The notes under the pieces were generated by a model. The model made no database searches and was not told where the DNA came from. It saw only the letters and a program-made list of their open reading frames with translations. Of a stretch of DNA of 64,000 nt, positions 37,635 to 64,000 are shown one piece after another (within the stretch, counting starts at the first letter, position 1; each line of letters begins with the position of its first letter). The stretch comes from Loxodes magnus (lineage: Eukaryota > Ciliophora > Karyorelictea > Loxodida > Loxodidae). The DNA lies in the NCBI GenBank assembly GCA_946699065.1, contig CAMPDV010002021.1, positions 17,624 through 81,623 of the forward strand, written 5' to 3'. Both the position numbers and the translations under genes were made by a program.

Positions 37635-39087
37635 CTTATCATTAGATATTCTTTTCTTACTTTACTTCTTCACTTTTCTATAGGCTAACTTTCATCTACA
37701 AGCATATCTTGACTAACCGAATATAGATTCGTAATTATTACATTATTACTAACATTTTGGATATTCTAACTTATATTTTAGTGCTTGATACGAAAACTTA
37801 TCATTAGATATTCTTTTCTTACTTTACTTCTTCACTTTTCAATAGGCTAACTTTCATCTACAAGCATATCTTGACTAACTGGATACAGATTCGTAATTAT
37901 TACATTATTACTAACATTTTGGATATTCTAACTTATATTTTAGTACCTGCTACGCAAACTTATCATTAGATATTCTTTTCTTACTTTACTTCTTCACTTT
38001 TCTATAGGCTAACTTTCATCTACAAGCATATCTTGACTAACTGGATACAGATTCGTAATTATTACATTATTACTAACATTTTGGATATTCTAACTTATAT
38101 TTTAGTGCTTGCTACGCAAACTTATCATTAGATATTCTTTTCTTACTTTACTTCTTCACTTTTCTATAAGCTAACTTTCATCTACAAGCATATCTTGACT
38201 AACTGGATACAGATTCGTGATTATTACATTATTACTAACATTTTGGATATTCTAACTTATATTTTAGTGCTTGATACGAAAACTTATCATTAGATATTCT
38301 TTTCTTACTTTACTTCTTCATCAATAGGCTAACTTTCATCTACAAGCATATCTTGACAAACCGAATACAGATTCGTAATTATTACATTATTACTAACATT
38401 TTAAATATTCTAACTTATATTTTAGTACCTGCTACGCAAACTTATCATTAGATATTCTTTTCTTACTTTACTTCTTCACTTTTCTAAAGCTAACTTTCAT
38501 CTACAAGCATATCTTGACAAACTGAATACAGATTCGTGATTATTACATTATTACTAACATTTTGGATATTCTAACTTATATTTTAGTACCTGCTACGCAA
38601 ACTTATCATTAGATATTCTTTTCTTACTTTACTTCTTCACTTTTCTATAGGCTAACTTTCATCTACAAGCATATCTTGACTAACCGAATATAGATTCGTA
38701 ATTATTACATTATTACTAACATTTTGGATATTCTAACTTATATTTTAGTGCTTGATACGAAAACTTATCATTAGATATTCTTTTCTTACTTTACTTCTTC
38801 ACTTTTCTATAGGCTAACTTTCATCTACAAGCATATCTTGACTAACTGGATACAGATTCGTAATTATTACATTATTACTAACATTTTAAATATTCTAACT
38901 TATATTTTAGTGCTTGCTACGCAAACTTATCATTAGATATTCTTTTCTTACTTTACTTCTTCACTTTTCTATAAGCTAACTTTCATCTACAAGCATATCT
39001 TGACAAACTGAATACAGATTCGTAATTATTACATTATTACTAACATTTTGGATATTCTAACTTATATTTTAGTGCTTGATACGAAAA

Positions 39088-39166
39088 CTTATCATTAGAT
39101 ATTCTTTTCTTACTTTATTACTAACATTTTGGATATTCTAACTTATATTTTAGTGCTTGATACAAA
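39088..39166 (+). repeat. 79-bp half-length monomer
   Basis: Landmark spacing is 79 bp. Sequence runs from cttacttta of half A straight into ttactaac of half B, losing about 83 bp. In the alignment of the two halves these points correspond (cttactttacttcttcac opposite attacattattactaac). The deletion is therefore in half-unit register, as expected from unequal recombination between halves A and B. It is independent of the S units of region 2, which join the halves at a different point. Confidence 0.75.
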
Positions 39167-39280
39167 CTTATCATTAGATATTCTTTTCTTACTTTACTTC
39201 TTCACTTTTCTATAGGCTAACTTTCATCTACAAGCATATCTTGACTAACCGAATATAGATTCGTAATTATTACATTATTA

Positions 39281-39405
39281 CTTCTTCACTTTTCAATATT
39301 CTAACTTATCATTCTACAAGCTTGATACTTGAAAACTTATCATACAGATTATTCACTTTTACTTACATTTTGGATATTCTTCACTTATTCAATAGTGCTA
39401 ACTTT
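39281..39405 (+). repeat. Scrambled monomer segment
   Basis: About 125 bp is a patchwork of short monomer pieces out of their normal order: cttcttcacttttcaata, then ttctaacttatc, attctacaag, cttgatacttgaaaac, ttatcatacagattattc, acattttggatattc, and finally a return to normal near aatagtgctaac. All pieces read in the same orientation and no foreign DNA is included. Repeated template switching could explain it; a misassembled or low-quality stretch is the alternative. Confidence 0.7.
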
Positions 39406-42400
39406 CATCTACAAGCATATCTTGACTAACTGGATACAGATTCGTAATTATTACATTATTACTAACATTTTAAATATTCTAACTTATATTTTAGTGCTTG
39501 CTACGCAAACTTATCATTAGATATTCTTTTCTTACTTTACTTCTTCACTTTTCTATAGGCTAACTTTCATCTACAAGCATATCTTGACTAACCGAATATA
39601 GATTCGTAATTATTACATTATTACTAACATTTTGGATATTCTAACTTACTAAGTGCTTGATACGAAGACTTATCATTAGATATTCTTTTCTTACTTTACT
39701 TCTTCACTTTTCAATAGGCTAACTTTCATCTACAAGCATATCTTGACTAACTGGATACAGATTCGTAATTATTACATTATTACTAACATTTTAAATATTC
39801 TAACTTATATTTTAGTGCTTGCTACGCAAACTTATCATTAGATATTCTTTTCTTACTTTACTTCTTCACTTTTCTATAGGCTAACTTTCATCTACAAGCA
39901 TATCTTGACTAACCGAATATAGATTCGTAATTATTACATTATTACTAACATTTTGGATATTCTAACTTATATTTTAGTGCTTGATACGAAAACTTATCAT
40001 TAGATATTCTTTTCTTACTTTACTTCTTCACTTTTCAATAGGCTAACTTTCATCTACAAGCATATCTTGACTAACTGGATACAGATTCGTGATTATTACA
40101 TTATTACTAACATTTTAAATATTCTAACTTATATTTTAGTGCTTGATACGAAAACTTATCATTAGATATTCTTTTCTTACTTTACTTCTTCACTTTTCTA
40201 ATAGGCTAACTTTCATCTACAAGCATATCTTGACAAACCGAATACAGATTCGTAATTATTACATTATTACTAACATTTTGGATATTCTAACTTATATTTT
40301 AGTACCTGCTACGCAAACTTATCATTAGATATTCTTTTCTTACTTTACTTCTTCACTTTTCTATAAGCTAACTTTCATCTACAAGCATATCTTGACAAAC
40401 TGAATACAGATTCGTGATTATTACATTATTACTAACATTTTAAATATTCTAACTTATATTTTAGTACCTGCTACGCAAACTTATCATTAGATATTCTTTT
40501 CTTACTTTACTTCTTCACTTTTCTATAAGCTAACTTTCATCTACAAGCATATCTTGACTAACCGAATATAGATTCGTAATTATTACATTATTACTAACAT
40601 TTTGGATATTCTAACTTATATTTTAGTGCTTGATACGAAAACTTATCATTAGATATTCTTTTCTTACTTTACTTCTTCACTTTTCAATAGGCTAACTTTC
40701 ATCTACAAGCATATCTTGACTAACTGGATACAGATTCGTAATTATTACATTATTACTAACATTTTGGATATTCTAACTTATATTTTAGTGCTTGCTACGC
40801 AAACTTATCATTAGATATTCTTTTCTTACTTTACTTCTTCACTTTTCTATAGGCTAACTTTCATCTACAAGCATATCTTGACTAACCGAATATAGATTCG
40901 TAATTATTACATTATTACTAACATTTTGGATATTCTAACTTATATTTTAGTGCTTGATACGAAAACTTATCATTAGATATTCTTTTCTTACTTTACTTCT
41001 TCACTTTTCTAATAGGCTAACTTTCATCTACAAGCATATCTTGACAAACTGAATACAGATTCGTGATTATTACATTATTACTAACATTTTGGATATTCTA
41101 ACTTATATTTTAGTACCTGCTACGCAAACTTATCATTAGATATTCTTTTCTTACTTTACTTCTTCACTTTTCTATAGGCTAACTTTCATCTACAAGCATA
41201 TCTTGACTAACCGAATATAGATTCGTAATTATTACATTATTACTAACATTTTGGATATTCTAACTTATATTTTAGTGCTTGATACGAAAACTTATCATTA
41301 GATATTCTTTTCTTACTTTACTTCTTCACTTTTCAATAGGCTAACTTTCATCTACAAGCATATCTTGACTAACTGGATACAGATTCGTAATTATTACATT
41401 ATTACTAACATTTTAAATATTCTAACTTATATTTTAGTGCTTGCTACGCAAACTTATCATTAGATATTCTTTTCTTACTTTACTTCTTCACTTTTCTATA
41501 GGCTAACTTTCATCTACAAGCATATCTTGACTAACCGAATATAGATTCGTAATTATTACATTATTACTAACATTTTGGATATTCTAACTTATATTTTAGT
41601 GCTTGATACGAAAACTTATCATTAGATATTCTTTTCTTACTTTACTTCTTCACTTTTCAATAGGCTAACTTTCATCTACAAGCATATCTTGACTAACTGG
41701 ATACAGATTCGTAATTATTACATTATTACTAACATTTTGGATATTCTAACTTATATTTTAGTACCTGCTACGCAAACTTATCATTAGATATTCTTTTCTT
41801 ACTTTACTTCTTCACTTTTCTAAAGCTAACTTTCATCTACAAGCATATCTTGACTAACCGAATATGGATTCGTAATTATTACATTATTACTAACATTTTA
41901 AATATTCTAACTTATATTTTAGTGCTTGCTACGCAAACTTATCATTAGATATTCTTTTCTTACTTTACTTCTTCACTTTTCTATAGGCTAACTTTCATCT
42001 ACAAGCATATCTTGACTAACCGAATATAGATTCGTAATTATTACATTATTACTAACATTTTGGATATTCTAACTTATATTTTAGTGCTTGATACGAAAAC
42101 TTATCATTAGATATTCTTTTCTTACTTTACTTCTTCACTTTTCAATAGGCTAACTTTCATCTACAAGCATATCTTGACAAACCGAATACAGATTCGTAAT
42201 TATTACATTATTACTAACATTTTGGATATTCTAACTTATATTTTAGTACCTGCTACGCAAACTTATCATTAGATATTCTTTTCTTACTTTACTTCTTCAC
42301 TTTTCTATAAGCTAACTTTCATCTACAAGCATATCTTGACAAACTGAATACAGATTCGTGATTATTACATTATTACTAACATTTTGGATATTCTAACTTA

Positions 42401-50679: not shown

Positions 50680-50759
50680 AAAATACTTATTACTTCTCAA
50701 AGCATACTCCTTAAAACTGAAATTCTATCTTCTTTTCATACTCTACTTCTTCACTTTTC
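50680..50759 (+). repeat. S unit, type Sa (representative, 80 bp)
   Basis: After cacttttc the unit begins aaaatacttattacttctc, continues through agcatactcc and ttaaaactgaaattc, and ends with ttttcatactctac and the shared cttcttcacttttc. Its last half matches half A of the monomer. Its first half aligns with the ctaacttt-to-gaatacagatt stretch of half A (agcata, ctt, aaactgaa shared) but has diverged. The whole of half B is missing. I read it as a lone half-A unit. Confidence 0.8.
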
Positions 50760-50921
50760 AATAGGCTAACTTTCATCTACAAGAATATCTTGAAAAACCG
50801 AATACAGATTCGTAATTATTATATTATCACTAACATTTTGGATATTCTAACTTATATTTTAGTGCTTGCTACGAAAACTTATCATTAGATATTCTTTTCT
50901 TACTTTACTTCTTCACTTTTC
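50760..50921 (+). repeat. M unit, type M1 (representative, 162 bp)
   Basis: M1 carries cttgaaaaaccg at site B and tattatcactaac in half B. Everywhere in region 2 that I could follow, M1 is immediately followed by the Sb type of S unit. Confidence 0.85.
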
Positions 50922-51001
50922 TAAATACTTATTACTCCTCAAAGCATACTCCTTAAAACTGAAATTCTATCTTCTTTTCTTACTTTACTTCTTCACTTTT
51001 C
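50922..51001 (+). repeat. S unit, type Sb (representative, 80 bp)
   Basis: Sb starts taaatacttattactcctc and ends with ttttcttactttac, the same ending as M units. In every case seen it is followed by another S unit, never by M, so it is the first S of the 322-bp module. Confidence 0.85.
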
Positions 51002-51081
51002 TAAATACTTATTACTTCTCAAAGCATACTCCTTAAAACTGAAATTCTATCTTCTTTTCATACTCTACTTCTTCACTTTTC
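51002..51081 (+). repeat. S unit, type Sc (representative, 80 bp)
   Basis: Sc starts taaatacttattacttctc and ends ttttcatactctac. It differs from Sa essentially at its first bases (taaatac against aaaatac). It is followed by M. Confidence 0.85.
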
Positions 51082-51243
51082 AATAGGCTAACTTTCATCT
51101 ACAAGAATATCTTGACAAACCGAATACAGATTCGTAATTATTATATTATTACTAACATTTTGGATATTCTAACTTATATTTTAGTGCTTGCTACGAAAAC
51201 TTATCATTAGATATTCTTTTCTTACTTTACTTCTTCACTTTTC
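51082..51243 (+). repeat. M unit, type M2 (representative, 162 bp)
   Basis: M2 carries cttgacaaaccg at site B and tattattactaac in half B. It is the commoner M type in region 2, and is followed by Sa, or less often by Sb, Sc or Sd. Confidence 0.85.
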
Positions 51244-51807
51244 AAAATACTTATTACTTCTCAAAGCATACTCCTTAAAACTGAAATTCTATCTTCTTTT
51301 CATACTCTACTTCTTCACTTTTCAATAGGCTAACTTTCATCTACAAGAATATCTTGACAAACCGAATACAGATTCGTAATTATTATATTATTACTAACAT
51401 TTTGGATATTCTAACTTATATTTTAGTGCTTGCTACGAAAACTTATCATTAGATATTCTTTTCTTACTTTACTTCTTCACTTTTCTAAATACTTATTACT
51501 TCTCAAAGCATACTCCTTAAAACTGAAATTCTATCTTCTTTTCATACTCTACTTCTTCACTTTTCAATAGGCTAACTTTCATCTACAAGAATATCTTGAA
51601 AAACCGAATACAGATTCGTAATTATTATATTATCACTAACATTTTGGATATTCTAACTTATATTTTAGTGCTTGCTACGAAAACTTATCATTAGATATTC
51701 TTTTCTTACTTTACTTCTTCACTTTTCTAAATACTTATTACTCCTCAAAGCATACTCCTTAAAACTGAAATTCTATCTTCTTTTCTTACTTTACTTCTTC
51801 ACTTTTC

Positions 51808-51886
51808 TAAATACTTATTACTTCTCAAAGCATACTCCTTAAAACTGAAATTCTATCTTCTTTTATTAGTTTACTTCTTCACTTTT
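51808..51886 (+). repeat. S unit, type Sd, before the aaaggg variant (79 bp)
   Basis: Sd ends ttttattagtttac. In six places it lacks its final c and is followed by an M unit beginning aaagggc in place of aataggc. These six landmarks (51,887, 53,176, 56,801, 58,170, 60,425, 62,680) mark the higher-order repeat boundaries used here. One Sd near 52,350 is followed by a normal aataggc instead. Confidence 0.85.
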
Positions 51887-53175
51887 AAAGGGCTAACTTT
51901 CATCTACAAGAATATCTTGACAAACCGAATACAGATTCGTAATTATTATATTATTACTAACATTTTGGATATTCTAACTTATATTTTAGTGCTTGCTACG
52001 AAAACTTATCATTAGATATTCTTTTCTTACTTTACTTCTTCACTTTTCAAAATACTTATTACTTCTCAAAGCATACTCCTTAAAACTGAAATTCTATCTT
52101 CTTTTCATACTCTACTTCTTCACTTTTCAATAGGCTAACTTTCATCTACAAGAATATCTTGACAAACCGAATACAGATTCGTAATTATTATATTATTACT
52201 AACATTTTGGATATTCTAACTTATATTTTAGTGCTTGCTACGAAAACTTATCATTAGATATTCTTTTCTTACTTTACTTCTTCACTTTTCTAAATACTTA
52301 TTACTTCTCAAAGCATACTCCTTAAAACTGAAATTCTATCTTCTTTTATTAGTTTACTTCTTCACTTTTCAATAGGCTAACTTTCATCTACAAGAATATC
52401 TTGACAAACCGAATACAGATTCGTAATTATTATATTATTACTAACATTTTGGATATTCTAACTTATATTTTAGTGCTTGCTACGAAAACTTATCATTAGA
52501 TATTCTTTTCTTACTTTACTTCTTCACTTTTCAAAATACTTATTACTTCTCAAAGCATACTCCTTAAAACTGAAATTCTATCTTCTTTTCATACTCTACT
52601 TCTTCACTTTTCAATAGGCTAACTTTCATCTACAAGAATATCTTGACAAACCGAATACAGATTCGTAATTATTATATTATTACTAACATTTTGGATATTC
52701 TAACTTATATTTTAGTGCTTGCTACGAAAACTTATCATTAGATATTCTTTTCTTACTTTACTTCTTCACTTTTCAAAATACTTATTACTTCTCAAAGCAT
52801 ACTCCTTAAAACTGAAATTCTATCTTCTTTTCATACTCTACTTCTTCACTTTTCAATAGGCTAACTTTCATCTACAAGAATATCTTGAAAAACCGAATAC
52901 AGATTCGTAATTATTATATTATCACTAACATTTTGGATATTCTAACTTATATTTTAGTGCTTGCTACGAAAACTTATCATTAGATATTCTTTTCTTACTT
53001 TACTTCTTCACTTTTCTAAATACTTATTACTCCTCAAAGCATACTCCTTAAAACTGAAATTCTATCTTCTTTTCTTACTTTACTTCTTCACTTTTCTAAA
53101 TACTTATTACTTCTCAAAGCATACTCCTTAAAACTGAAATTCTATCTTCTTTTATTAGTTTACTTCTTCACTTTT
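51887..53175 (+). repeat. Composite higher-order block, 1,289 bp
   Basis: The order is M2' Sa M2 Sd M2 Sa M2 Sa M1 Sb Sd (five M, six S; M2' begins aaaggg). It contains the only Sd followed by a normal M unit. Confidence 0.85.
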
Positions 53176-56100
53176 AAAGGGCTAACTTTCATCTACAAGA
53201 ATATCTTGACAAACCGAATACAGATTCGTAATTATTATATTATTACTAACATTTTGGATATTCTAACTTATATTTTAGTGCTTGCTACGAAAACTTATCA
53301 TTAGATATTCTTTTCTTACTTTACTTCTTCACTTTTCAAAATACTTATTACTTCTCAAAGCATACTCCTTAAAACTGAAATTCTATCTTCTTTTCATACT
53401 CTACTTCTTCACTTTTCAATAGGCTAACTTTCATCTACAAGAATATCTTGAAAAACCGAATACAGATTCGTAATTATTATATTATCACTAACATTTTGGA
53501 TATTCTAACTTATATTTTAGTGCTTGCTACGAAAACTTATCATTAGATATTCTTTTCTTACTTTACTTCTTCACTTTTCTAAATACTTATTACTCCTCAA
53601 AGCATACTCCTTAAAACTGAAATTCTATCTTCTTTTCTTACTTTACTTCTTCACTTTTCTAAATACTTATTACTTCTCAAAGCATACTCCTTAAAACTGA
53701 AATTCTATCTTCTTTTCATACTCTACTTCTTCACTTTTCAATAGGCTAACTTTCATCTACAAGAATATCTTGACAAACCGAATACAGATTCGTAATTATT
53801 ATATTATTACTAACATTTTGGATATTCTAACTTATATTTTAGTGCTTGCTACGAAAACTTATCATTAGATATTCTTTTCTTACTTTACTTCTTCACTTTT
53901 CAAAATACTTATTACTTCTCAAAGCATACTCCTTAAAACTGAAATTCTATCTTCTTTTCATACTCTACTTCTTCACTTTTCAATAGGCTAACTTTCATCT
54001 ACAAGAATATCTTGAAAAACCGAATACAGATTCGTAATTATTATATTATCACTAACATTTTGGATATTCTAACTTATATTTTAGTGCTTGCTACGAAAAC
54101 TTATCATTAGATATTCTTTTCTTACTTTACTTCTTCACTTTTCTAAATACTTATTACTCCTCAAAGCATACTCCTTAAAACTGAAATTCTATCTTCTTTT
54201 CTTACTTTACTTCTTCACTTTTCAAAATACTTATTACTTCTCAAAGCATACTCCTTAAAACTGAAATTCTATCTTCTTTTCATACTCTACTTCTTCACTT
54301 TTCAATAGGCTAACTTTCATCTACAAGAATATCTTGAAAAACCGAATACAGATTCGTAATTATTATATTATCACTAACATTTTGGATATTCTAACTTATA
54401 TTTTAGTGCTTGCTACGAAAACTTATCATTAGATATTCTTTTCTTACTTTACTTCTTCACTTTTCTAAATACTTATTACTCCTCAAAGCATACTCCTTAA
54501 AACTGAAATTCTATCTTCTTTTCTTACTTTACTTCTTCACTTTTCTAAATACTTATTACTTCTCAAAGCATACTCCTTAAAACTGAAATTCTATCTTCTT
54601 TTCATACTCTACTTCTTCACTTTTCAATAGGCTAACTTTCATCTACAAGAATATCTTGACAAACCGAATACAGATTCGTAATTATTATATTATTACTAAC
54701 ATTTTGGATATTCTAACTTATATTTTAGTGCTTGCTACGAAAACTTATCATTAGATATTCTTTTCTTACTTTACTTCTTCACTTTTCAAAATACTTATTA
54801 CTTCTCAAAGCATACTCCTTAAAACTGAAATTCTATCTTCTTTTCATACTCTACTTCTTCACTTTTCAATAGGCTAACTTTCATCTACAAGAATATCTTG
54901 ACAAACCGAATACAGATTCGTAATTATTATATTATTACTAACATTTTGGATATTCTAACTTATATTTTAGTGCTTGCTACGAAAACTTATCATTAGATAT
55001 TCTTTTCTTACTTTACTTCTTCACTTTTCTAAATACTTATTACTCCTCAAAGCATACTCCTTAAAACTGAAATTCTATCTTCTTTTCTTACTTTACTTCT
55101 TCACTTTTCTAAATACTTATTACTTCTCAAAGCATACTCCTTAAAACTGAAATTCTATCTTCTTTTCATACTCTACTTCTTCACTTTTCAATAGGCTAAC
55201 TTTCATCTACAAGAATATCTTGACAAACCGAATACAGATTCGTAATTATTATATTATTACTAACATTTTGGATATTCTAACTTATATTTTAGTGCTTGCT
55301 ACGAAAACTTATCATTAGATATTCTTTTCTTACTTTACTTCTTCACTTTTCAAAATACTTATTACTTCTCAAAGCATACTCCTTAAAACTGAAATTCTAT
55401 CTTCTTTTCATACTCTACTTCTTCACTTTTCAATAGGCTAACTTTCATCTACAAGAATATCTTGACAAACCGAATACAGATTCGTAATTATTATATTATT
55501 ACTAACATTTTGGATATTCTAACTTATATTTTAGTGCTTGCTACGAAAACTTATCATTAGATATTCTTTTCTTACTTTACTTCTTCACTTTTCAAAATAC
55601 TTATTACTTCTCAAAGCATACTCCTTAAAACTGAAATTCTATCTTCTTTTCATACTCTACTTCTTCACTTTTCAATAGGCTAACTTTCATCTACAAGAAT
55701 ATCTTGAAAAACCGAATACAGATTCGTAATTATTATATTATCACTAACATTTTGGATATTCTAACTTATATTTTAGTGCTTGCTACGAAAACTTATCATT
55801 AGATATTCTTTTCTTACTTTACTTCTTCACTTTTCTAAATACTTATTACTCCTCAAAGCATACTCCTTAAAACTGAAATTCTATCTTCTTTTCTTACTTT
55901 ACTTCTTCACTTTTCTAAATACTTATTACTTCTCAAAGCATACTCCTTAAAACTGAAATTCTATCTTCTTTTCATACTCTACTTCTTCACTTTTCAATAG
56001 GCTAACTTTCATCTACAAGAATATCTTGACAAACCGAATACAGATTCGTAATTATTATATTATTACTAACATTTTGGATATTCTAACTTATATTTTAGTG

Positions 56101-56800
56101 CTTGCTACGAAAACTTATCATTAGATATTCTTTTCTTACTTTACTTCTTCACTTTTCAAAATACTTATTACTTCTCAAAGCATACTCCTTAAAACTGAAA
56201 TTCTATCTTCTTTTCATACTCTACTTCTTCACTTTTCAATAGGCTAACTTTCATCTACAAGAATATCTTGACAAACCGAATACAGATTCGTAATTATTAT
56301 ATTATTACTAACATTTTGGATATTCTAACTTATATTTTAGTGCTTGCTACGAAAACTTATCATTAGATATTCTTTTCTTACTTTACTTCTTCACTTTTCA
56401 AAATACTTATTACTTCTCAAAGCATACTCCTTAAAACTGAAATTCTATCTTCTTTTCATACTCTACTTCTTCACTTTTCAATAGGCTAACTTTCATCTAC
56501 AAGAATATCTTGAAAAACCGAATACAGATTCGTAATTATTATATTATCACTAACATTTTGGATATTCTAACTTATATTTTAGTGCTTGCTACGAAAACTT
56601 ATCATTAGATATTCTTTTCTTACTTTACTTCTTCACTTTTCTAAATACTTATTACTCCTCAAAGCATACTCCTTAAAACTGAAATTCTATCTTCTTTTCT
56701 TACTTTACTTCTTCACTTTTCTAAATACTTATTACTTCTCAAAGCATACTCCTTAAAACTGAAATTCTATCTTCTTTTATTAGTTTACTTCTTCACTTTT
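53176..56800 (+). repeat. Composite higher-order block, 3,625 bp
   Basis: Thirteen M and nineteen S units lie between two aaaggg landmarks. The beginning (M2' Sa M1 Sb Sc M2 Sa) and the end (M2 Sa M2 Sa M1 Sb Sd) resemble the 2,255-bp unit. The interior has extra modules, including Sb followed by Sa near 54,225. Confidence 0.85.
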
Positions 56801-58169
56801 AAAGGGCTAACTTTCATCTACAAGAATATCTTGACAAACCGAATACAGATTCGTAATTATTATATTATTACTAACATTTTGGATATTCTAACTTATATTT
56901 TAGTGCTTGCTACGAAAACTTATCATTAGATATTCTTTTCTTACTTTACTTCTTCACTTTTCAAAATACTTATTACTTCTCAAAGCATACTCCTTAAAAC
57001 TGAAATTCTATCTTCTTTTCATACTCTACTTCTTCACTTTTCAATAGGCTAACTTTCATCTACAAGAATATCTTGAAAAACCGAATACAGATTCGTAATT
57101 ATTATATTATCACTAACATTTTGGATATTCTAACTTATATTTTAGTGCTTGCTACGAAAACTTATCATTAGATATTCTTTTCTTACTTTACTTCTTCACT
57201 TTTCTAAATACTTATTACTCCTCAAAGCATACTCCTTAAAACTGAAATTCTATCTTCTTTTCTTACTTTACTTCTTCACTTTTCTAAATACTTATTACTT
57301 CTCAAAGCATACTCCTTAAAACTGAAATTCTATCTTCTTTTCATACTCTACTTCTTCACTTTTCAATAGGCTAACTTTCATCTACAAGAATATCTTGACA
57401 AACCGAATACAGATTCGTAATTATTATATTATTACTAACATTTTGGATATTCTAACTTATATTTTAGTGCTTGCTACGAAAACTTATCATTAGATATTCT
57501 TTTCTTACTTTACTTCTTCACTTTTCAAAATACTTATTACTTCTCAAAGCATACTCCTTAAAACTGAAATTCTATCTTCTTTTCATACTCTACTTCTTCA
57601 CTTTTCAATAGGCTAACTTTCATCTACAAGAATATCTTGACAAACCGAATACAGATTCGTAATTATTATATTATTACTAACATTTTGGATATTCTAACTT
57701 ATATTTTAGTGCTTGCTACGAAAACTTATCATTAGATATTCTTTTCTTACTTTACTTCTTCACTTTTCAAAATACTTATTACTTCTCAAAGCATACTCCT
57801 TAAAACTGAAATTCTATCTTCTTTTCATACTCTACTTCTTCACTTTTCAATAGGCTAACTTTCATCTACAAGAATATCTTGAAAAACCGAATACAGATTC
57901 GTAATTATTATATTATCACTAACATTTTGGATATTCTAACTTATATTTTAGTGCTTGCTACGAAAACTTATCATTAGATATTCTTTTCTTACTTTACTTC
58001 TTCACTTTTCTAAATACTTATTACTCCTCAAAGCATACTCCTTAAAACTGAAATTCTATCTTCTTTTCTTACTTTACTTCTTCACTTTTCTAAATACTTA
58101 TTACTTCTCAAAGCATACTCCTTAAAACTGAAATTCTATCTTCTTTTATTAGTTTACTTCTTCACTTTT
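56801..58169 (+). repeat. Composite higher-order block, 1,369 bp
   Basis: The order is M2' Sa M1 Sb Sc M2 Sa M2 Sa M1 Sb Sd. This equals the 2,255-bp unit without an internal run of three M and five S units (886 bp), so the two forms differ by one module-level gain or loss. Confidence 0.87.
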
Positions 58170-60424
58170 AAAGGGCTAACTTTCATCTACAAGAATATCT
58201 TGACAAACCGAATACAGATTCGTAATTATTATATTATTACTAACATTTTGGATATTCTAACTTATATTTTAGTGCTTGCTACGAAAACTTATCATTAGAT
58301 ATTCTTTTCTTACTTTACTTCTTCACTTTTCAAAATACTTATTACTTCTCAAAGCATACTCCTTAAAACTGAAATTCTATCTTCTTTTCATACTCTACTT
58401 CTTCACTTTTCAATAGGCTAACTTTCATCTACAAGAATATCTTGAAAAACCGAATACAGATTCGTAATTATTATATTATCACTAACATTTTGGATATTCT
58501 AACTTATATTTTAGTGCTTGCTACGAAAACTTATCATTAGATATTCTTTTCTTACTTTACTTCTTCACTTTTCTAAATACTTATTACTCCTCAAAGCATA
58601 CTCCTTAAAACTGAAATTCTATCTTCTTTTCTTACTTTACTTCTTCACTTTTCTAAATACTTATTACTTCTCAAAGCATACTCCTTAAAACTGAAATTCT
58701 ATCTTCTTTTCATACTCTACTTCTTCACTTTTCAATAGGCTAACTTTCATCTACAAGAATATCTTGACAAACCGAATACAGATTCGTAATTATTATATTA
58801 TTACTAACATTTTGGATATTCTAACTTATATTTTAGTGCTTGCTACGAAAACTTATCATTAGATATTCTTTTCTTACTTTACTTCTTCACTTTTCTAAAT
58901 ACTTATTACTCCTCAAAGCATACTCCTTAAAACTGAAATTCTATCTTCTTTTCTTACTTTACTTCTTCACTTTTCTAAATACTTATTACTTCTCAAAGCA
59001 TACTCCTTAAAACTGAAATTCTATCTTCTTTTCATACTCTACTTCTTCACTTTTCAATAGGCTAACTTTCATCTACAAGAATATCTTGACAAACCGAATA
59101 CAGATTCGTAATTATTATATTATTACTAACATTTTGGATATTCTAACTTATATTTTAGTGCTTGCTACGAAAACTTATCATTAGATATTCTTTTCTTACT
59201 TTACTTCTTCACTTTTCAAAATACTTATTACTTCTCAAAGCATACTCCTTAAAACTGAAATTCTATCTTCTTTTCATACTCTACTTCTTCACTTTTCAAT
59301 AGGCTAACTTTCATCTACAAGAATATCTTGAAAAACCGAATACAGATTCGTAATTATTATATTATCACTAACATTTTGGATATTCTAACTTATATTTTAG
59401 TGCTTGCTACGAAAACTTATCATTAGATATTCTTTTCTTACTTTACTTCTTCACTTTTCTAAATACTTATTACTCCTCAAAGCATACTCCTTAAAACTGA
59501 AATTCTATCTTCTTTTCTTACTTTACTTCTTCACTTTTCTAAATACTTATTACTTCTCAAAGCATACTCCTTAAAACTGAAATTCTATCTTCTTTTCATA
59601 CTCTACTTCTTCACTTTTCAATAGGCTAACTTTCATCTACAAGAATATCTTGACAAACCGAATACAGATTCGTAATTATTATATTATTACTAACATTTTG
59701 GATATTCTAACTTATATTTTAGTGCTTGCTACGAAAACTTATCATTAGATATTCTTTTCTTACTTTACTTCTTCACTTTTCAAAATACTTATTACTTCTC
59801 AAAGCATACTCCTTAAAACTGAAATTCTATCTTCTTTTCATACTCTACTTCTTCACTTTTCAATAGGCTAACTTTCATCTACAAGAATATCTTGACAAAC
59901 CGAATACAGATTCGTAATTATTATATTATTACTAACATTTTGGATATTCTAACTTATATTTTAGTGCTTGCTACGAAAACTTATCATTAGATATTCTTTT
60001 CTTACTTTACTTCTTCACTTTTCAAAATACTTATTACTTCTCAAAGCATACTCCTTAAAACTGAAATTCTATCTTCTTTTCATACTCTACTTCTTCACTT
60101 TTCAATAGGCTAACTTTCATCTACAAGAATATCTTGAAAAACCGAATACAGATTCGTAATTATTATATTATCACTAACATTTTGGATATTCTAACTTATA
60201 TTTTAGTGCTTGCTACGAAAACTTATCATTAGATATTCTTTTCTTACTTTACTTCTTCACTTTTCTAAATACTTATTACTCCTCAAAGCATACTCCTTAA
60301 AACTGAAATTCTATCTTCTTTTCTTACTTTACTTCTTCACTTTTCTAAATACTTATTACTTCTCAAAGCATACTCCTTAAAACTGAAATTCTATCTTCTT
60401 TTATTAGTTTACTTCTTCACTTTT
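58170..60424 (+). repeat. 2,255-bp higher-order repeat, copy 1
   Basis: The order is M2' Sa M1 Sb Sc M2 Sb Sc M2 Sa M1 Sb Sc M2 Sa M2 Sa M1 Sb Sd: eight M and twelve S units. The predicted length (8 x 162 + 12 x 80 - 1) equals the observed 2,255 bp. Confidence 0.92.
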
Positions 60425-62679
60425 AAAGGGCTAACTTTCATCTACAAGAATATCTTGACAAACCGAATACAGATTCGTAATTATTATATTATTACTAACA
60501 TTTTGGATATTCTAACTTATATTTTAGTGCTTGCTACGAAAACTTATCATTAGATATTCTTTTCTTACTTTACTTCTTCACTTTTCAAAATACTTATTAC
60601 TTCTCAAAGCATACTCCTTAAAACTGAAATTCTATCTTCTTTTCATACTCTACTTCTTCACTTTTCAATAGGCTAACTTTCATCTACAAGAATATCTTGA
60701 AAAACCGAATACAGATTCGTAATTATTATATTATCACTAACATTTTGGATATTCTAACTTATATTTTAGTGCTTGCTACGAAAACTTATCATTAGATATT
60801 CTTTTCTTACTTTACTTCTTCACTTTTCTAAATACTTATTACTCCTCAAAGCATACTCCTTAAAACTGAAATTCTATCTTCTTTTCTTACTTTACTTCTT
60901 CACTTTTCAAAATACTTATTACTTCTCAAAGCATACTCCTTAAAACTGAAATTCTATCTTCTTTTCATACTCTACTTCTTCACTTTTCAATAGGCTAACT
61001 TTCATCTACAAGAATATCTTGACAAACCGAATACAGATTCGTAATTATTATATTATTACTAACATTTTGGATATTCTAACTTATATTTTAGTGCTTGCTA
61101 CGAAAACTTATCATTAGATATTCTTTTCTTACTTTACTTCTTCACTTTTCTAAATACTTATTACTCCTCAAAGCATACTCCTTAAAACTGAAATTCTATC
61201 TTCTTTTCTTACTTTACTTCTTCACTTTTCTAAATACTTATTACTTCTCAAAGCATACTCCTTAAAACTGAAATTCTATCTTCTTTTCATACTCTACTTC
61301 TTCACTTTTCAATAGGCTAACTTTCATCTACAAGAATATCTTGACAAACCGAATACAGATTCGTAATTATTATATTATTACTAACATTTTGGATATTCTA
61401 ACTTATATTTTAGTGCTTGCTACGAAAACTTATCATTAGATATTCTTTTCTTACTTTACTTCTTCACTTTTCAAAATACTTATTACTTCTCAAAGCATAC
61501 TCCTTAAAACTGAAATTCTATCTTCTTTTCATACTCTACTTCTTCACTTTTCAATAGGCTAACTTTCATCTACAAGAATATCTTGAAAAACCGAATACAG
61601 ATTCGTAATTATTATATTATCACTAACATTTTGGATATTCTAACTTATATTTTAGTGCTTGCTACGAAAACTTATCATTAGATATTCTTTTCTTACTTTA
61701 CTTCTTCACTTTTCTAAATACTTATTACTCCTCAAAGCATACTCCTTAAAACTGAAATTCTATCTTCTTTTCTTACTTTACTTCTTCACTTTTCTAAATA
61801 CTTATTACTTCTCAAAGCATACTCCTTAAAACTGAAATTCTATCTTCTTTTCATACTCTACTTCTTCACTTTTCAATAGGCTAACTTTCATCTACAAGAA
61901 TATCTTGACAAACCGAATACAGATTCGTAATTATTATATTATTACTAACATTTTGGATATTCTAACTTATATTTTAGTGCTTGCTACGAAAACTTATCAT
62001 TAGATATTCTTTTCTTACTTTACTTCTTCACTTTTCAAAATACTTATTACTTCTCAAAGCATACTCCTTAAAACTGAAATTCTATCTTCTTTTCATACTC
62101 TACTTCTTCACTTTTCAATAGGCTAACTTTCATCTACAAGAATATCTTGACAAACCGAATACAGATTCGTAATTATTATATTATTACTAACATTTTGGAT
62201 ATTCTAACTTATATTTTAGTGCTTGCTACGAAAACTTATCATTAGATATTCTTTTCTTACTTTACTTCTTCACTTTTCAAAATACTTATTACTTCTCAAA
62301 GCATACTCCTTAAAACTGAAATTCTATCTTCTTTTCATACTCTACTTCTTCACTTTTCAATAGGCTAACTTTCATCTACAAGAATATCTTGAAAAACCGA
62401 ATACAGATTCGTAATTATTATATTATCACTAACATTTTGGATATTCTAACTTATATTTTAGTGCTTGCTACGAAAACTTATCATTAGATATTCTTTTCTT
62501 ACTTTACTTCTTCACTTTTCTAAATACTTATTACTCCTCAAAGCATACTCCTTAAAACTGAAATTCTATCTTCTTTTCTTACTTTACTTCTTCACTTTTC
62601 TAAATACTTATTACTTCTCAAAGCATACTCCTTAAAACTGAAATTCTATCTTCTTTTATTAGTTTACTTCTTCACTTTT
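60425..62679 (+). repeat. 2,255-bp higher-order repeat, copy 2
   Basis: It has the same twenty-unit order and exact length as the preceding copy. The one difference in unit type that I could see is the fifth unit, Sa near 60,908 where copy 1 has Sc. Confidence 0.92.
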
Positions 62680-64000
62680 AAAGGGCTAACTTTCATCTAC
62701 AAGAATATCTTGACAAACCGAATACAGATTCGTAATTATTATATTATTACTAACATTTTGGATATTCTAACTTATATTTTAGTGCTTGCTACGAAAACTT
62801 ATCATTAGATATTCTTTTCTTACTTTACTTCTTCACTTTTCAAAATACTTATTACTTCTCAAAGCATACTCCTTAAAACTGAAATTCTATCTTCTTTTCA
62901 TACTCTACTTCTTCACTTTTCAATAGGCTAACTTTCATCTACAAGAATATCTTGAAAAACCGAATACAGATTCGTAATTATTATATTATCACTAACATTT
63001 TGGATATTCTAACTTATATTTTAGTGCTTGCTACGAAAACTTATCATTAGATATTCTTTTCTTACTTTACTTCTTCACTTTTCTAAATACTTATTACTCC
63101 TCAAAGCATACTCCTTAAAACTGAAATTCTATCTTCTTTTCTTACTTTACTTCTTCACTTTTCTAAATACTTATTACTTCTCAAAGCATACTCCTTAAAA
63201 CTGAAATTCTATCTTCTTTTCATACTCTACTTCTTCACTTTTCAATAGGCTAACTTTCATCTACAAGAATATCTTGACAAACCGAATACAGATTCGTAAT
63301 TATTATATTATTACTAACATTTTGGATATTCTAACTTATATTTTAGTGCTTGCTACGAAAACTTATCATTAGATATTCTTTTCTTACTTTACTTCTTCAC
63401 TTTTCTAAATACTTATTACTCCTCAAAGCATACTCCTTAAAACTGAAATTCTATCTTCTTTTCTTACTTTACTTCTTCACTTTTCTAAATACTTATTACT
63501 TCTCAAAGCATACTCCTTAAAACTGAAATTCTATCTTCTTTTCATACTCTACTTCTTCACTTTTCAATAGGCTAACTTTCATCTACAAGAATATCTTGAC
63601 AAACCGAATACAGATTCGTAATTATTATATTATTACTAACATTTTGGATATTCTAACTTATATTTTAGTGCTTGCTACGAAAACTTATCATTAGATATTC
63701 TTTTCTTACTTTACTTCTTCACTTTTCAAAATACTTATTACTTCTCAAAGCATACTCCTTAAAACTGAAATTCTATCTTCTTTTCATACTCTACTTCTTC
63801 ACTTTTCAATAGGCTAACTTTCATCTACAAGAATATCTTGAAAAACCGAATACAGATTCGTAATTATTATATTATCACTAACATTTTGGATATTCTAACT
63901 TATATTTTAGTGCTTGCTACGAAAACTTATCATTAGATATTCTTTTCTTACTTTACTTCTTCACTTTTCTAAATACTTATTACTCCTCAAAGCATACTCC
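62680..64000 (+). repeat. 2,255-bp higher-order repeat, copy 3 (cut by window end)
   Basis: The order M2' Sa M1 Sb Sc M2 Sb Sc M2 Sa M1 Sb matches copy 1 exactly until the window ends inside the Sb unit. The array therefore continues past the window. Confidence 0.9.

What the first reader, a model, noticed from the sequence alone, without database searches (positions are those of the whole stretch)
50680..51081. The 80-bp S unit appears to be a lone half-A unit born by half-register exchange
S keeps only half A: its end matches the pyrimidine tract and cttcttcacttttc, and its start aligns with the second part of half A. The missing roughly 80 bp equals half B. The join falls between agatt (start of half B) and agatattc (start of half A), the same point in both halves. 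A simple model is unequal crossing over between the halves, followed by divergence and amplification.
Basis: partly seen in the sequence, partly recalled or inferred. Interest (0 to 1): 0.7.

Follow-up and report, generated by a model that had tools for sequence, protein, structure and literature searches.

The report
80-bp satellite mixed into 162-bp array

Summary
M is an old dimer of ~81-bp halves: lag 81 is its best self-match (38-40 of 81; 1-2 of 2000 shuffles reach it).

The birth story is not supported. An S probe matches 463,332 places in the source assembly (705.7 Mb, inferred to be Loxodes magnus MAC), an M probe 84,683, reversed controls 0. S also stands in stretches without M. The S head is about as close to half B (25/46) as to half A (27/46), though over the whole unit S is closer to A. 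A fresh half-A fusion has no match. Real half-register products occur, look like M and not S, and are few in what was read.

Best reading: S, A and B are sister ~81-bp units; M is a diverged dimer; S enters M arrays by exchange in a shared ~29-bp tail (604 of 606 M/S joints in seven contig stretches). Which came first is open; S-first is mildly favoured.

The parts
50680..50759 (+). S unit, type CAAAATACTT..., tail x (CATACTC)
50760..50921 (+). M unit (162 bp), region-2 type (GAATATC)
50922..51001 (+). S unit, type CTAAATACTTATTACTCC, tail y (as in M)
51002..51081 (+). S unit, type CTAAATACTTATTACTTC, tail x
50680..64000 (+). Region 2: mixed array, single M units separated by one S (27 runs) or two S (21 runs); continues to the contig end
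1..50679 (+). Region 1: M array (161-162 bp), no S unit found in it
38969..39209 (+). 241-bp odd unit with a +81 diagonal jump from A1 to B1 (an added half): a half-register product
39210..39293 (+). 84-bp odd unit with a +78 jump from B1 to A1 (a lost half); followed by scrambled sequence, so possibly affected by assembly errors

Best explanation
S is a unit of an abundant, independent 80-bp satellite of this genome. S and the two halves of the 162-bp M monomer descend from one ~81-bp unit (shown: the three align in register with one single-base gap; inferred: common descent). M is most simply an old dimer of that unit whose halves drifted apart and which was then amplified as 162 bp (inferred). 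S and M consensus units still share an identical ~29-bp pyrimidine-rich tail. Exchange inside that tail (unequal crossing over, conversion or other short-homology recombination) puts S units into M arrays and M units into S arrays without a scar (inferred from joint positions and from two loci where M and S share a changed tail). Mixed M-S and M-S-S blocks are then amplified as higher-order repeats, giving region 2 (shown: few distinct units in exact copies; two contigs that differ by whole blocks). So the S units at 50680-51081 most likely came from the S satellite and were not made on the spot from half A.
For: S probe 463,332 matches, M probe 84,683, reversed controls 0. Stretches with S and no M: C5:1-5000 (55 S, 0 M) and C9:1922501-1926500 (46 S, 0 M). 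40,952 M-to-S joints genome-wide, about 48% of M matches but 9% of S matches. 604 of 606 M/S joints in seven contig stretches lie at the shared tail. Each mixed locus read has its own S variant. M and S share a non-consensus tail at C36 and C1144. Three-way counts in the head: S=A2 only 13, S=B2 only 11, A2=B2 only 5, i.e. S has the shortest branch in 90% of bootstraps; tail S=A1 14, S=B1 0. Among S variants the tail varies at least as much as the head (0.099 against 0.073), so constraint alone does not explain the S/M tail identity. No match for the direct half-A fusion.
Against: In 6 of 8 mixed stretches M and S share no changed tail, and in region 2 the changed S tails x and z (48 of 69) are absent from the 49 M tails. 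Within M the tail is among the less variable stretches (17 of 162 windows as low or lower), so some constraint is possible. The 604 joints are mostly amplified copies of few events, and C2021 and C2549 share much of the same array. The sign tests for the short S branch are not significant (p = 0.21 and 0.10). Over the whole unit S is closer to half A than to half B (58 against 42 of 80). S-first is not shown.
Confidence: 0.7

Rival explanations
1. One reading: S is half A of M, cut loose by in-register exchange between the halves, then diverged, amplified and spread genome-wide.
For: S is closer to half A than to half B over the whole unit (58 and 42 of 80); A2+A1 is the best-scoring combination for S; the head match to A2 beats the one to B2 with gaps and shuffles; half-register products exist in C2021.
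Against: The head alone shows no preference (13 to 11 columns); S is 5.5 times commoner than M by probe and stands without M; 0 direct A2-A1 fusions at up to 3 mismatches; head and tail diverge unevenly (p = 0.002); S consensus units differ more between loci than M ones (0.070 against 0.045).
Confidence: 0.2
2. M is S with an unrelated ~81-bp insert (B1+B2) at the S2/S1 border; the half structure of M is chance.
For: Gapped alignment of halves A and B is weak (38-138 of 1000 shuffles reach it); B1 matches S1 at only 17 of 34.
Against: Lag 81 is the top lag of M, reached by 1-2 of 2000 shuffles, and by 1, 0 and 0 of 500 when any lag may win; half-register jumps of 78-81 show that the halves recombine at matching places.
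Confidence: 0.08
3. S in the M array is an assembly artefact.
For: The assembly has flaws here: scrambled units at window 37555 and 39294-39552, and C2549 turns to the opposite strand at about 50 kb with a mirrored spacing pattern.
Against: C2021 and C2549 hold 105 identical units in the same order over the shared part; S and M-to-S joints are found tens to hundreds of thousands of times; the presumed source paper reports HiFi reads (PMC11441545, passages).
Confidence: 0.01

Closest known systems
Meloidogyne chitwoodi / M. fallax satellite library with Box 1 / Box 2 junctions (PMC3694981; abstract and sections 13 and 14 read)
   Same: Diverged monomers occur both in simple arrays and in mixed higher-order arrays; joints lie in short conserved segments, one of them (Box 2) a 20-bp T/C/A tract; simple arrays can be dimers of diverged monomers.
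   Different: Other organism and sequences; here the shared segment is ~29 bp at the unit end and the two repeats are a unit and a diverged dimer of one family. The CENP-B-like Box 1 was not looked for here.
Alpha satellite of primates (as described in PMC3694981, section 14)
   Same: Monomers arranged as simple arrays and as higher-order repeats; an ancient dimer of diverged monomers is mentioned for the marmoset.
   Different: ~171-bp monomers; no half-length autonomous satellite mixed in is mentioned in what I read.
Tandem repeats of Loxodes magnus (PMC11441545; abstract, sections 12 and 16, and passages read)
   Same: Probably the very assembly: MAC 706 Mbp, of which 231 Mbp tandem repeats.
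   Different: The main text has 0 occurrences of 'satellite', 'monomer', '80 bp' and '162'; its supplement was not available to me, so I cannot say the repeats are undescribed.

Membership tests
Satellite DNA | Head-to-tail arrays of one unit in high copy | tested here: met
   S 463,332 and M 84,683 probe matches; tandem spacing of 80 and 162 bp
Satellite DNA | Recent local homogenisation | tested here: met
   8 distinct units among 118 in region 2
Mixed satellite with conserved-box junctions (Meloidogyne type) | Same monomers in simple and in mixed arrays | tested here: met
   M alone in region 1, S alone at C5 and C9, both mixed in region 2, C2538, C5844, C36, C1144
Mixed satellite with conserved-box junctions (Meloidogyne type) | Joints between different monomers lie in a shared short segment | tested here: met
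   604 of 606 M/S joints; joints are not independent events
Mixed satellite with conserved-box junctions (Meloidogyne type) | CENP-B-box-like motif | not tested
   no motif search made
   best of 80 rotations to both halves
   tail yes (14 to 0), head no (13 to 11); whole unit 58 and 42 of 80
   0 matches for one 43-base fusion at up to 3 mismatches, both strands; indels and other variants not covered
Centromeric satellite | Bound by the centromeric H3 variant | not testable with these tools
   no chromatin data held

The most novel reading that the evidence does not exclude
S and M are the chromosome-wide structural (perhaps centromeric) satellite pair of a karyorelict ciliate, built by doubling of an ~80-bp unit to the ~160-bp nucleosome repeat reported for Loxodes, with the shared ~29-bp tail acting as an exchange or protein-binding site that keeps two diverged families recombining.
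Probability: 0.15. Interest if true: 0.65.

Novelty: new member of a known kind. Interest (0 to 1): 0.3.

Why it matters
It turns a local story of repeat birth into a genome-wide one: a satellite pair of roughly 50 Mb (probe counts and 21 times unit length) in which a short monomer and a diverged dimer of the same family are mixed through one shared tail. It offers a countable system for how diverged satellites keep exchanging, and a candidate for structural chromosome DNA in a ciliate lineage; the listings showed me no paper that describes a Loxodes satellite.

Tried and rejected
A 40-bp substructure of S (doubling 40 to 80 to 160): not supported, 432 of 1000 shuffles reach the score. Constraint as the only reason for the identical tail: not favoured, because among S variants the tail varies at least as much as the head; in M the tail is among the less variable parts, so it is not excluded. 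Nucleosome phase as a limit on S number: runs of one S (27) outnumber runs of two (21) in the window, and 114 against 67 in C2549, so a 160-bp phase is not kept. Gapped alignment of halves A and B was weak (38-138 of 1000); the ungapped lag test was clearer. A literature search for 80-bp or 162-bp satellites found two papers, on a liverwort and on melon (listing only). A genome search with S as DNA scored 40 of 478 candidates and listed only C2549 and C2021, which misled until the pattern search. The count of A2-to-B2 joints (2) is a lower bound: the one at C2021:14300 differs by an indel and is not among them.

Full report
WHAT IS THERE. The window is satellite DNA from end to end by Tandem Repeats Finder and unit spacing. 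Positions 1-50679 hold M units of mostly 161-162 bp plus a few odd ones; from 50680 to the end, M units are separated by one or two 80-bp S units.

WHOSE GENOME. The mitochondrial COX1 on contig C5505 is best matched by chains 7w5z and 8b6h, which I recall to be Tetrahymena. The assembly size fits the 706 Mbp macronuclear assembly of Loxodes magnus (PMC11441545, passages).

THE OBSERVATION. M is an old dimer. Of all circular lags 81 gives the highest self-identity (38, 40 and 39 of 81 positions for three M variants; other lags about 31%, sd 3.2-3.5%), reached by 1, 2 and 2 of 2000 dinucleotide shuffles. S aligns to alpha and beta in one register with one single-base gap: 44/80 and 56/80, each the best of 80 rotations. 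The last 34 columns of S match A1 at 31 and B1 at 17. The head of S matches A2 at 27/46 and B2 at 25/46, while A2 and B2 match each other at 20/47. So S matches half A at 58/80 and half B at 42/80, the difference coming from the tail. With gaps and shuffles the head's match to A2 is marginal (5 to 95 of 1000, by M variant) and the one to B2 is not above chance (333 to 630).

WHY THE BIRTH STORY FAILS. A 32-base S-head probe with up to 3 mismatches has 463,332 matches and none when read backwards; a 35-base M probe has 84,683 and none. At 80 and 162 bp each this is about 37 and 14 Mb, rough figures because probes differ. S stands without M in two stretches (C5:1-5000 with 55 S, C9:1922501-1926500 with 46 S). 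The 43-base fusion that a fresh lone half A would carry has no match at up to 3 mismatches. Half-register exchange does occur: diagonal jumps of -80, +81, +81 and +78 in C2021. The other jumps in the eight odd units examined, of sixteen listed in the script, were 42, 42, 51, -65, 8, several of 1-3 bases, and 81, 27, -31, -74 inside a scrambled stretch. These products read as stitched M and do not resemble S. One A2-to-B2 joint has 2 matches genome-wide, a lower bound.

THREE-WAY COMPARISON. With consensus units over 9 S loci and 10 M loci, the 46 head columns give 14 shared by all, 13 S=A2 only, 11 S=B2 only, 5 A2=B2 only, 3 all different; the tail gives 17, 14 S=A1 only, 0 S=B1 only, 2, 1. 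The head is close to a star with S on the shortest branch (90% of bootstraps, but sign tests p = 0.21 and 0.10); S groups with A2 in 62% and with B2 in 30%. S differs from half A at 19/46 head and 3/34 tail sites (Fisher p = 0.002). One birth with even divergence does not give this; continued exchange in the tail would. Among S variants the tail is as variable as the head or more (0.099 against 0.073); among M variants it is less variable than A2, B1 and B2 (0.027 against 0.079, 0.042, 0.059), so constraint may play a part.

HOW IT WORKS, AS FAR AS SHOWN. In seven contig stretches 604 of 606 M/S joints lie at the shared tail, though most are amplified copies of few events and C2021 and C2549 overlap. 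Genome-wide 40,952 M-to-S joints were counted at up to 3 mismatches, about 48% of M matches and 9% of S matches. At C36 (1 of 3 M, 15 of 38 S) and C1144 (4 of 9 M, 3 of 19 S) M and S share a non-consensus tail; in the other six mixed stretches (C2021 left, C2021 right, C2549, C2538, C1706, C5844) they do not. Amplification is recent: region 2 has 8 distinct units among 118, and C2021 and C2549 share 105 identical units in order, with 3 mismatched units and gaps of whole blocks.

WHAT IT IS LIKE. The nearest precedent I read is the Meloidogyne case, where diverged satellites are mixed and joints lie in conserved boxes, one a 20-bp T/C/A tract (PMC3694981, abstract and sections 13-14). The present case works like that. 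I found no description of S or M in the main text of the Loxodes paper ('satellite', 'monomer', '80 bp', '162' absent) or in the listings; the supplement was not available to me, so I do not claim it is unreported.

LIMITS. The order of events cannot be settled without an outgroup. Satellite stretches of 11 contigs were read. The variability counts drop units whose tail is not at the expected place and count small shifts as mismatches.

Noticed in passing
G000:C2549:50001-61403 (L027, L031): The array turns to the opposite strand at about 50 kb and its unit spacings mirror those just before: a fold-back, probably an assembly artefact; not aligned base by base.
   Followed up: partly
G000:C1706 and G000:C4654 (L034, L035): Two more head-to-head inversions of the M array are visible at array ends; artefact or real macro-palindromes.
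   Followed up: no
G000:C2021:1-2600 (L023), left of the window: A second mixed M/S array with another S variant (AAACGTAAATTC) and region-1 type M; the M array of region 1 is thus flanked by mixed arrays on both sides.
   Followed up: yes
G000:C2021:1907-2114: A 208-bp unit joins M (..TCATTAGA) to S (AATACTTATT..) outside the shared tail: one of the 2 exceptions among 606 M/S joints.
   Followed up: partly
G000:C1144:93001-96000 (L040): One unit joins an S head to the end of B2 at AAAACT, within about one base of register: a direct S/M recombinant away from the tail.
   Followed up: no
window 4755 and 42467: Two odd units show diagonal jumps of 42, near a quarter of M.
   Followed up: no
G000:C5505 and C5958: Each contig carries COX1 twice in opposite orientation about 11 kb apart: inverted duplicate mitochondrial contigs, real or fold-back.
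   Followed up: no
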